Assembly (NCBI GenBank): GCA_002763035.1
Contig: PFDC01000161.1
Coordinates: 1-6,841, forward strand
DNA from: Candidatus Pacearchaeota archaeon CG10_big_fil_rev_8_21_14_0_10_35_13
Lineage (GTDB): Archaea; Nanobdellota; Nanobdellia; Pacearchaeales; GW2011-AR1
DNA: 6,841 nucleotides
Direction: 5' to 3'
The translations under genes and the position numbers were made by a program. Numbering within the stretch: position 1 is the stretch's first letter; every line of letters begins with the position of its first letter. Below are positions 5,478 to 6,720 of the stretch, one piece after another. The notes under the pieces were generated by a model that was given only the letters and a program-made list of their open reading frames with translations, ran no database searches and was not told the origin of the DNA.

Positions 5478-6113
5478 TTAATTAAAGCTCCCTAATATTT
5501 TTTCTAACTCTGGCACTTCTACTTCTTCAGGATTTATCTTCACACCATTCTTTTCCCAGTAACTATCACTCAAGACTTCTCTTGATACCAGGGTCATTTC
5601 CCTCAGGTCTTCTTCAGTTATTATTCCTAATTCTCTAAGTTTTTCAAGCATCACAATTTCTGTTTTTATTCTCCTGATTGTTGCTCTTGCAGCATCGTAG
5701 CCTAAGTCTTCTGTTAGTATACCCATTTTTTCTTCGTGGGTAAGGTTTTCCCTTGCCATCCTTTCTTTTAATTTTTTGAGTTTGTCTTCACCCTTAGTTG
5801 CTCTTGCAACTTCACAACTTCGGTAAATCACTTCACTTAGCTTGTCTATTAGCCCTTGGGGAACTTCTGCTCGTTTAAAGCCATTAATCACATCAAGATA
5901 ATGAAATATTTCCCCCTCTTCTGGCTGAAGGTTTTTTGGTAGTTCTTCTCCGTGGTCTCTGAAGTACATATCTTTGTACTTTATTAAAGATTCGGAGGTT
6001 ATTCTGTCAGTTATTTCTTTTTCCTTCCTTTCTTCTTCTGCAACTTTCTCGTTGAGTATTCTTTCTATTTCTTCCATTACTCTTGTTGATGGTTGAACAA
6101 TGCTGATTATCAT
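5478..6113 (-). CDS. Hypothetical helical, highly charged protein
   Basis: I do not recognise this family. The 211-residue product is soluble, strongly charged and predicted by eye to be almost entirely helical. It has a Glu/Lys-rich, coiled-coil-like N-terminal stretch (about residues 13-45) and a second helical block (about 105-180) containing DLGYDAARATIRRIKTEI and LRELGIITEEDLREM. There is no signal peptide, membrane segment, cysteine cluster or nucleotide-binding motif. The start is uncertain. The ATG at 6113 gives an extra MIISIVQPSTRV, while the in-frame ATG at 6077 gives MEEIERILNEKV, a more natural helical beginning. For 6113, an ATAAATAAT box at 6154-6162 would leave a leader of about 20 nt. 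For 6077, TATGATAAT (6104-6112) lies 27-35 bp upstream. Codon use (A/C-ending third positions) matches the other minus-strand genes, which supports real coding. It lies 57 bp upstream of the YchF-type GTPase gene, so a shared transcript is possible. Confidence 0.75.
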   Translation of the reverse strand: MIISIVQPSTRVMEEIERILNEKVAEEERKEKEITDRITSESLIKYKDMYFRDHGEELPKNLQPEEGEIFHYLDVINGFKRAEVPQGLIDKLSEVIYRSCEVARATKGEDKLKKLKERMARENLTHEEKMGILTEDLGYDAARATIRRIKTEIVMLEKLRELGIITEEDLREMTLVSREVLSDSYWEKNGVKINPEEVEVPELEKILGSFN

Positions 6114-6270: not shown

Positions 6271-6410
6271 GAGCCTGTAGCTCAGCCCGGTTAGAGCACT
6301 GGTCTTATATGACGGCGAACCGTTAAGGGGTTTGTTTATGAGTAAGTTCTTTCTTACTTATTCCGTGCTGAGAAAGCCAGGGGTCCCCGGTTCAAATCCG
6401 GGCAGGCTCA
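6271..6410 (+). tRNA. tRNA-Ile (anticodon UAU) with a 65-nt intron
   Basis: The mature tRNA is 6271-6309 joined to 6375-6410, 75 nt. Acceptor arm: GAGCCTG (6271-6277) with CAGGCTC (6403-6409), discriminator A6410, no encoded CCA. D arm: GCTC/GAGC around AGCCCGGTTA. Anticodon stem: CTGGT (6299-6303) with GCCAG (6376-6380). T arm: CCCGG/CCGGG around TTCAAAT. With the intron at canonical position 37/38 the anticodon loop is CTTATAA, giving anticodon TAT (6306-6308), which reads the isoleucine codon AUA. Splicing is supported by a BHB motif: exon CTTA (6304-6307) pairs with intron TGAG (6369-6372), with 3-nt bulges on both sides. Most archaea read AUA with a CAU-anticodon tRNA carrying agmatidine, so a UAU anticodon is rare. 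The 3' end is repeated downstream. Confidence 0.9.
6310..6374 (+). other. Archaeal tRNA intron (BHB-type, position 37/38)
   Basis: 65-nt intron removed by the archaeal splicing endonuclease. The 5' cut falls between A6309 and T6310 in bulge T-A|T, and the 3' cut between A6374 and A6375 in bulge A-A|A; the 4-bp central helix includes one U-G pair. The intron interior folds well: GACGG (6311-6315) can pair with CCGTGC (6363-6368) apart from one bulged base, CGAACC (6316-6321) pairs with GGTTTG (6329-6334), and AGTAAG (6341-6346) pairs with CTTACT (6353-6358). No reading frame of note is inside. Confidence 0.85.
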
Positions 6411-6720
6411 TTTATTTTTTTTGCCTGCTTCTTTGGTTGCAGGAACTAATAGAAACCCGCTGGTGGTTTGTATGCAGGCTCATTTATTTTTTTTGCCTGC
6501 TTTTTTGGTTGCAGGAACTAATAGAAACCCGCTGGTGGTTGTATATCACGAAGTGTTGGTTGCAGGACTCATAGAACCCGCTGGGGGTTGTATGCAGGCT
6601 CATACTATTCACCACATGATTTTTGACTCCTACGGTTGTTCTTTGGAACTAATAGAAACCTTTTTTCTTAAGAAAGGTTTGTATGCAGGCTCATCCTATT
6701 CCCTACATGCTTCTTGTTCT
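6402..6720 (+). repeat. Degenerate repeat array carrying copies of the tRNA-Ile 3' end
   Basis: This fills most of the 365-bp gap between the tRNA and the last gene. GCAGGCTCAT, which is the tRNA 3' end plus one base, recurs at 6402, 6474, 6594 and 6685. Units 6402-6473 and 6474-6544 are nearly identical (72 and 71 bp; one C/T change and one T deletion). A third, shorter unit (6545-6593) keeps only the right part. A fourth (6594-6684) has a diverged left part, and a fifth start (from 6685) resembles the left part of the fourth (CTATTC and ACATG shared). The conserved right core is GGAACTAATAGAAACC, a loop, GGTT(T), then GTAT, and it forms a small stem-loop in every copy. No convincing protein is encoded. 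Origin and role are unknown; tandem duplication of the tRNA 3' end plus trailer, or repeated integration at the tRNA 3' end, are the options I see. Confidence 0.85.
6411..6422 (+). terminator. T-rich terminator after the tRNA
   Basis: TTTATTTTTTTT begins right after the discriminator base. Oligo-T tracts on the non-template strand are the main archaeal termination signal. The same tract recurs in the second repeat unit (6483-6494), so termination could be in series. Confidence 0.55.

What the first reader, a model, noticed from the sequence alone, without database searches (positions are those of the whole stretch)
6402..6720. Repeat array built on copies of the tRNA-Ile 3' end
Seen directly: the last nine bases of the tRNA (GCAGGCTCA) plus T recur three more times downstream, each later copy preceded by GTAT and a small stem-loop; two 72-bp units are nearly identical and others are diverged. 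Known: integrative elements use tRNA 3' ends as attachment sites and leave direct repeats of them. Inference: either a serial tandem duplication of tRNA tail plus trailer, a graveyard of very small elements inserted at the tRNA end, or a non-coding RNA made by read-through from the strong tRNA promoter. No integrase gene is in the window, and the units look too short to be ordinary islands.
Basis: partly seen in the sequence, partly recalled or inferred. Interest (0 to 1): 0.75.

Follow-up and report, generated by a model that had tools for sequence, protein, structure and literature searches.

The report
Tiny mobile repeats docking at genes
In a group of small-genome archaea a folded repeat of about 40 bases, likely a very small mobile element, is scattered through the genome with one end, in about two thirds of the copies, touching a gene edge (start codon, stop codon, tRNA end or tRNA intron junction) or lying just behind a tRNA, and the array in this window is four such copies stacked behind a tRNA gene.

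Summary
The window holds four copies of a roughly 40-nt structured repeat behind a tRNA gene, three of them followed by a copy of the tRNA's last bases. It is not local: the repeat also lies behind tRNA-Gln, -Thr and -Glu in this genome (the first two with a copy of their own tRNA's 3' end) and in 56 of 200 genomes of its order (own included). Rfam has no such family. Over 185 hits, stem and loop pairs covary. The striking rule is positional: the repeat's 3' end abuts functional edges. Mechanically called ORF starts: 60 at -2..+3 nt against about 4 per equal bin further on; antisense stop codons: 19 at -4..+3 against about 2. Another 12 copies lie in tRNA introns with that end at the exon junction, 7 at tRNA edges, 31 behind tRNAs (17 with an exact target duplicate). 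At start codons the repeat supplies a Shine-Dalgarno (48 of 51). At argS two species carry it, while three relatives have the ATG 20 nt after the same promoter box. Best reading: a non-autonomous mini-element inserting at gene edges; the array grew by insertion plus tandem duplication. The enzyme is unknown; Cas1 and TnpB do not track copy number; 63 copies abut nothing recognised.

The parts
6271..6410 (+). tRNA gene with an intron (tRNA-Ile by reading of the sequence; ARAGORN with introns says Ser)
   Evidence: Rfam tRNA 55.3 bits
6402..6411 (+). X1: tRNA 3' end GCAGGCTCA plus T, first copy of the duplicated target
6412..6432 (+). spacer 1; contains GCCTGC, the reverse complement of GCAGGC in X (X')
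6433..6473 (+). core copy 1 (41 nt)
   Evidence: model R1, 63.2 bits; identical 41 nt behind tRNA-Gln at L007:3077-3117
6474..6483 (+). X2: second copy of GCAGGCTCAT, abutting the 3' end of core 1
6484..6504 (+). spacer 2 with the same X' GCCTGC; unit 2 is a 99% copy of unit 1
6505..6544 (+). core copy 2
   Evidence: R1 51.0 bits
6545..6555 (+). 11-nt linker ATCACGAAGTG, identical to the linker of the 49-bp units on contig C55
6556..6593 (+). core copy 3 (38-nt subtype shared with the C55 units)
   Evidence: R1 50.4 bits
6594..6603 (+). X3: third copy of GCAGGCTCAT
6636..6684 (+). core copy 4, degenerate, loop replaced by a longer hairpin
   Evidence: R1 19.3 bits
6685..6694 (+). X4: fourth copy of GCAGGCTCAT; 6676-6716 is 85% identical to 6585-6625

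Best explanation
The array is four copies of a dispersed, folded repeat of about 40 nt that is likely a non-autonomous mobile mini-element, predicted to be inserted at gene edges by an enzyme that was not identified. Shown: the repeat has a 9-bp stem (five outer pairs covary, the inner ones hardly vary) and two positions of its upstream strand that covary with the stem's loop, as in a pseudoknot. Its 3' end abuts ORF starts and antisense stop codons far more often than nearby positions do, and further copies abut tRNA edges and tRNA intron junctions. Behind tRNAs it is often followed by a copy of that tRNA's own 3' end and preceded by a short reverse complement of it. At start codons it brings a Shine-Dalgarno at 5-9 nt spacing. 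At one gene, occupied and empty sites differ by little more than the repeat. Inferred: staggered breaks about 10-24 nt apart at a gene edge are joined to the folded element and filled in, which duplicates the edge (the X copies); the copy that still serves the gene is kept and the other decays; the inverted X' comes from snap-back copying or is a structural need. Inferred for the window: one insertion behind the tRNA, tandem duplication of the 72-bp unit, and exchange with, or re-insertion of, the 49-bp subtype of contig C55.
For: Own genome: copies behind tRNA-Gln (24-nt exact duplicate of its 3' end), tRNA-Thr (12 nt) and tRNA-Glu (no clear duplicate). 56 of 200 genomes of the order and 26 of 371 of the phylum hit, own included. 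185 distinct hits from 54 sources: 56 ORF starts, 31 behind tRNA 3' ends, 16 antisense to stop codons, 12 in tRNA introns, 7 at tRNA edges, 63 other. Position profile over 182 copies: 60 ORF starts at -2..+3 nt, 0 in each of the three bins before and 0 in the next, then about 4 per 6-nt bin; antisense stops 19 at -4..+3 against about 2 per bin. The core's 5' end shows no ORF start within 8 nt and 7 ORF stops at -7..+3. Exact target duplicates of 10 nt or more in 17 of 31 behind tRNAs (shuffled mean 1.8, max 6 in 300); X' of 6 nt or more in 10 of 31 (shuffled mean 2.5, max 7 in 500). Covariation: 7-24 paired in 143 of 145 (shuffled max 131), 9-28 in 120 of 145 (shuffled max 99). Empty sites: argS carries the core in G081 and G082, 21 nt after TTTATTAAC by count of the sequence; in G083, G080 and G078 the ATG follows the same box after exactly 20 nt.
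Against: No mobilising enzyme found: Cas1 in 0 of 18 copy-rich genomes and 1 of 18 copy-less ones; TnpB-type zinc ribbon over cut-off in 2 of 18 and 2 of 18; reverse transcriptase in 12 of 18 against 7 of 18, and the two read in full sit near DGR-like target proteins by my reading. A duplicated target is shown for tRNAs; of 56 ORF-start copies only 1 has one of 10 nt or more, of 16 stop-codon copies none, of 12 intron copies none. X' is not above chance at ORF starts (1 of 56). Pair 8-23 shows no covariation, and pair 5-25 covaries as like bases, not as Watson-Crick pairs. 63 of 185 copies abut nothing I recognised. The within-genome likeness of cores compares a best-of-several with a single ortholog and is biased. 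ORF calls are mechanical; at least one window copy counts as an ORF start of a frame that is probably spurious. No transposition, excised form or transcript was observed. A strict edge preference is hard to get from random insertion.
Confidence: 0.6

Rival explanations
1. The core is a cis-acting RNA leader (a translation module or small riboswitch-like pseudoknot) of housekeeping mRNAs; the tRNA copies are stray or secondary.
For: 56 of 185 copies are classed at ORF starts, with GGAGG in 48 of 51 alignable ones, spaced 5-9 nt from ATG. Fourteen pairs of related proteins occur among the abutted genes, 12 of them from different genera, for example uS19, SRP54, eS1 and PheT (names are my reading of the sequences). 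34 of 56 have a short upstream ORF across the core, 22 of these ending at or next to the start codon.
Against: 10 of 12 intron copies and the 16 stop-codon copies are antisense to the gene; copies behind tRNAs have GGAGG in only 12 of 31; tRNA target duplications.
Confidence: 0.2
2. RNA-guided homing: the pseudoknot is the scaffold of a guide RNA and the adjoining gene edge is its guide, which keeps copies only where the next bases are conserved.
For: It would explain why the 3' side meets conserved sequence in either orientation, and the recurrence at related genes, including an ftsZ-like stop in two genera.
Against: TnpB/Cas12f-type zinc ribbons are over cut-off in only 2 of 18 copy-rich genomes. 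Behind tRNAs the intact target X1 stays beside the element and would be cut.
Confidence: 0.1
3. Remnants of ordinary integrase-type islands at tRNA genes, reduced to their right attachment end.
For: Duplicates mostly run from the T-loop to the tRNA 3' end; tRNA 3' ends are usual attachment sites in archaea (PMC3293823, passages read).
Against: X copies match the host tRNA for several different tRNAs within one genome; inserts are tiny; most copies are not behind tRNAs.
Confidence: 0.07
4. A purely local tandem expansion of tRNA tail plus trailer.
For: The two 72-bp units are 99% identical.
Against: The same core stands at unrelated places in the own genome and in dozens of others.
Confidence: 0.03

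Closest known systems
REP / REPIN elements mobilised by RAYT (TnpA-REP) transposases
   Same: Short (20-40 nt) hairpin repeats dispersed in a genome, with no coding capacity (PMC3733652 listing and passages).
   Different: No GTAG or CGTC tag; loop pseudoknot; at most about 15 copies per genome found here; docking of one end at gene edges; target duplication at tRNAs. RAYT presence not tested.
Casposons (Cas1-type integrases)
   Same: Insert at tRNA 3' ends and at 3' ends of conserved protein genes with target duplication (PMC4046053, PMC6614799, passages read).
   Different: No genes in the insert; Cas1 absent from the 18 copy-rich genomes tested; also docks at start codons and intron junctions.
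Archaeal tRNA-targeting integrative elements (SSV-type, pNOB8-type)
   Same: Tail of the tRNA repeated beyond the element (PMC3293823, passages).
   Different: Insert of about 46-78 nt without genes in the copies with clean duplicates; duplicate is host-derived for each tRNA; tRNAs are a minority of targets.
Archaeal BHB tRNA introns
   Same: 12 copies lie inside tRNA introns with the core end at or within a few nt of the exon junction.
   Different: Most copies are outside introns, and 10 of the 12 are in antisense.
Pseudoknot riboswitches that overlap the Shine-Dalgarno (recalled, for example preQ1 or SAM-II types)
   Same: Small pseudoknot with the Shine-Dalgarno in or next to it.
   Different: No Rfam match on the core at E up to 5 in 10 sources; antisense and tRNA copies.

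Membership tests
REP/REPIN | dispersed short hairpin repeat | tested here: met
REP/REPIN | GTAG or CGTC tag at one end | tested here: not met
   aligned cores begin NNGGNTGC and end in variable stem bases; tag definition from PMC3733652 passages
REP/REPIN | RAYT (HUH Y1) transposase in the genome | not tested
Casposon | Cas1-type integrase in the genome | tested here: not met
   0 of 18 copy-rich genomes; the MAGs are incomplete
Casposon | target duplication at gene 3' ends | tested here: inconclusive
   for tRNAs 17 of 31 with exact duplicates of 10 nt or more; for stop-codon copies 0 of 16
IS200/605 TnpB omega-RNA | TnpB-type protein in the genome | tested here: not met
   over cut-off in 2 of 18 copy-rich genomes, G000 and G034
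Retrotransposed SINE-like element | reverse transcriptase able to act in trans | tested here: inconclusive
   RT in 12 of 18 copy-rich against 7 of 18 copy-less genomes; two inspected look like DGR enzymes by their neighbours
tRNA-integrating element with tyrosine integrase | integrase gene in the element | tested here: not met
   inserts of about 46-78 nt hold no gene; integrases elsewhere in the genome were not searched
Known structured RNA family | match to an Rfam model | tested here: not met
   no match on the core at E up to 5; only tRNA reaches gathering scores in 10 sources
BHB tRNA intron | lies within a pre-tRNA at a splice junction | tested here: not met
   true for 12 of 185 copies only

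The most novel reading that the evidence does not exclude
A new class of mobile element in DPANN archaea that docks onto the ends of functional sequences themselves: a folded core joined to the 5' ends of leaderless messages, tRNAs and exons in sense, and to gene ends in antisense, and then written into the genome. It carries its own ribosome-binding site on one strand and an immediate stop codon on the other, so that it can sit flush against essential genes without harm.
Probability: 0.25. Interest if true: 0.92.

Novelty: new variant of a known kind. Interest (0 to 1): 0.8.

Why it matters
It would be among the smallest mobile elements known, in archaea whose mobile DNA is hardly described, and its docking at start codons, stop codons, tRNA ends and intron junctions is a targeting rule for which I know no enzyme. 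It also gives a concrete route by which tRNA genes gain tail duplications and filled introns, and by which leaderless genes gain a leader with a Shine-Dalgarno. Each of these can be tested by comparing strains.

Tried and rejected
Rejected or left open: (1) Chance or assembly artefact: speak against it. (2) Virus-borne element: two pattern scans of viral contigs gave 44 stretches; under the model none scored above 25.7 bits. Five of them share a full-length match of 25.0 bits, which I took as chance-like because the scan had selected the hairpin, and did not follow. (3) Known RNA family: none. (4) TnpB, reverse transcriptase and Cas1 as mobilisers. (5) A conserved leader peptide: short ORFs across the core exist, but the frame changes between subtypes and pair 7-24 changes on both sides. 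(6) A TATA box at a fixed distance before the core in the ORF-start class: only a weak peak, 8 of 45 motif hits in the best 5-nt window against 3.5 expected; the leaderless-start idea rests mainly on argS. (7) T-loop insertions in Aenigmatarchaeota: 7-nt TTTCGAA repeats flank two copies (L105, L115), but ARAGORN finds no tRNA with the insert in or left out, so this is suggestive only. (8) X' as a general feature: above chance behind tRNAs, not at ORFs.

Limits: the genomes are draft MAGs; ORF calls are mechanical (60 aa or more); searches count the own genome, and one search lists only its best matches. Of the 49 stretches, six loci were put into the census and one (L116) fell out as a repeat; the rest were read only. 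Three of the 185 are second-strand matches of a hairpin already counted. 166 of 185 could be put in fixed columns, 145 distinct; the other 19 were left out. Five of the 31 copies filed behind tRNAs also end at a called ORF start, among them both argS copies. One search printed three loci (L330, L331, L344) at a wrong offset; one search repeated the argS ones, L344 was not repeated. HUH/RAYT transposases and integrases elsewhere in the genomes were not tested. That nothing like this is in print rests only.

Full report
What is there. Sorting the array into parts shows that the repeated thing is a core of about 40 nt, TTGGTTGCAGGAACTAATAGAAACCCGCTGGTGGTTTGTAT, whose 3' end touches a copy of the tRNA tail in three of the four cases. 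The second and third cores are joined by an 11-nt linker identical to the linker of the 49-bp units on contig C55, so the array mixes two subtypes.

Not only here. In the own genome (850 kb, 182 contigs) the core also stands behind tRNA-Gln, followed by a 24-nt exact duplicate of that tRNA's own end, behind tRNA-Thr with a 12-nt duplicate, and behind tRNA-Glu without a clear one. A covariance model of 15 cores hits 12 of 56 genomes at E up to 1e-3, 56 of 200 genomes of the order at E up to 1e-5 and 26 of 371 of the phylum at E up to 1e-6, the own genome counted each time. An exact-pattern scan of named genomes gave 49 stretches: 44 archaeal, named Pacearchaeota, Nanoarchaeota, Aenigmatarchaeota, one Hydrothermarchaeota and one DHVE2, all with model matches, and five bacterial without a full-length match. 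Viral contigs gave weak matches only. Rfam has no such family.

Fold. Of 185 hits 166 could be put in fixed columns, 145 distinct. The five outer stem pairs exceed shuffles; the inner ones hardly vary. Two further pairs link the 5' strand to the hairpin loop: 7-24 is G-C in 130 and C-G in 10, paired in 143 of 145 against at most 131 in 2000 shuffles; 9-28 is T-A in 89 and A-T in 29, paired in 120 of 145 against at most 99. Pair 8-23 shows no covariation, and 5-25 covaries as T/T and A/A, which is not Watson-Crick. Shuffles do not remove relatedness, but both forms of 9-28 occur together in 11 sources, and the C-G form of 7-24 in six. So the core most likely works as a folded single strand, RNA or DNA, with a pseudoknot.

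Where it sits. I fetched contexts for 188 hits, 185 after dropping repeats, from 54 sources. Start positions of ORFs of 60 aa or more relative to the core's 3' end in 182 copies: 60 fall at -2..+3 nt; the three 6-nt bins before and the one after hold none, and later bins about 4 each. Stop codons of antisense ORFs: 19 at -4..+3 against about 2 per bin. The core's 5' end shows no such rule (no ORF start within 8 nt, seven stops at -7..+3). Sorted once each: 56 ORF starts, 31 behind tRNA 3' ends, 16 antisense to stop codons, 12 in tRNA introns with the core end 36-42 nt from the tRNA 5' end (10, antisense) or 44-45 nt from its 3' end (2, sense), 7 at tRNA edges and 63 other. Five of the 31 behind tRNAs also end at a called ORF start. 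In the antisense-stop class the stop codon itself often lies in the core, because its reverse complement starts with (A/G)TAA or ATAG; part of that pile-up may come from this alone.

Target duplication. Behind tRNAs the core is followed, in 17 of 31 cases, by an exact duplicate of 10 nt or more (shuffled partners: mean 1.8, max 6 in 300). Thirteen of the 17 are 20-24 nt, and by my reading fourteen start at T-loop base 53-55 and run to just past the tRNA end; two (one of them in the window) lie in tandem arrays, where the array unit lengthens the match. Just before the core there is often a reverse complement of the first bases of the duplicate that follows the tRNA's own T-loop variant (GGATTTG for TTCAAATCC, GGAATCG for TTCGATTCC). 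This inverted piece is 6 nt or longer in 10 of 31, against a shuffled mean of 2.5 and max of 7 in 500. At ORF starts only one of 56 copies has a duplicate of 10 nt or more (L059, 11 nt), and the inverted piece is not above chance. Such traces would be free to decay there, but that is inference.

Empty sites. In one genus the arginyl-tRNA synthetase gene (my reading of the protein) carries the core between promoter and ATG in G081 and G082: TTTATTAAC, 21 nt, then the core, then A and ATG. In G083, G080 and G078 the same box TTTATTAAC is followed by exactly 20 nt and the ATG. So the core sits where the start codon stood, turning a leaderless-looking gene into one with a leader. This shows gain or loss of little more than the repeat, not recent movement. 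A search for TATA-like boxes at fixed distance over the ORF-start copies gave only a weak peak.

What it does. At start codons the core brings GGAGG in 48 of 51 alignable copies, 5-9 nt before the ATG. In 34 of 56 a short ORF crosses the core, 22 of them ending at or next to the start codon, which hints at coupled translation. Among the abutted genes there are 14 pairs of related proteins, 12 between genera. For 13 pairs I compared the cores: of 21 sides with another copy in the same genome, the core was more like that copy than like the ortholog in 18, equal in two and less in one. A best-of-several is compared with one ortholog here, so this leans to homogenisation or repeated insertion without proving it.

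Mechanism. The evidence favours a non-autonomous mini-element inserted at gene edges with duplication of the edge; the copy that still serves the gene is kept. Shown: fold by covariation, positions, duplications at tRNAs, empty and occupied sites. Inferred: mobility itself, staggered breaks, action in trans. The enzyme is open. Cas1, which does the like in casposons (passages), is absent from the 18 copy-rich genomes tested; a TnpB-type zinc ribbon is over cut-off in two of 18; reverse transcriptases are common but not specific (12 of 18 against 7 of 18), and the two inspected look like DGR enzymes. HUH/RAYT transposases, the mobilisers of REP elements, were not tested. The main rival, a regulatory leader, explains the ORF-start class well but not the antisense copies or the tRNA duplications.

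Known or new. I found no described family with this combination. The searches behind that statement are in an open-access library. Papers were seen in passages (PMC6614799, PMC4046053, PMC3293823, PMC12306157, PMC3733652), in abstract (PMC3218864) or only in search listings. It works like a REP or MITE and fails the REP tag test, so I rate it a new variant of a known kind, with the docking rule as the truly strange part.

Noticed in passing
L007:7538-8455: Free-standing LAGLIDADG (PF14528) ORF whose stop codon lies inside the tRNA-Glu gene 8440-8515 that carries a core behind it.
   Followed up: partly
L007:9049-9170 and 9447-10367: Core units of 49 bp without a tRNA (two full, one cut), next to a DDE_Tnp_1 transposase ORF; a 16-bp inverted repeat 9176-9191 / 9605-9620.
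   Followed up: no
L323, L322: Reverse transcriptases beside genes that look like DGR target proteins, in the window genome and in G113.
   Followed up: partly
L045 (G024:C18): A core ends at the start codon of a transposase-like ORF, 43 nt behind tRNA-Cys.
   Followed up: no
G014 and G109 copies, e.g. L058, L071, L205: [GA]GAGGC stands within 45 nt upstream of the core in 10 copies of G014 and 6 of G109, by eye in the loop of an extra hairpin.
   Followed up: no
L105:7614-7653, L115:3735-3774: Aenigmatarchaeota copies flanked on both sides by TTTCGAA inside what looks like a tRNA T-loop; would be an unusual T-loop intron.
   Followed up: partly
G026 contig C12: A Cas12f-like zinc ribbon and Cas1 within about 3.5 kb, in a genome without copies of the repeat.
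   Followed up: no
window 5478-6113: ORF of 211 aa on the minus strand without a Pfam match.
   Followed up: no
G024 loci L076, L080: A second, different small repeat GGAGGTGCGGAACCG...GGTTCTG or close to it is seen near several cores.
   Followed up: no
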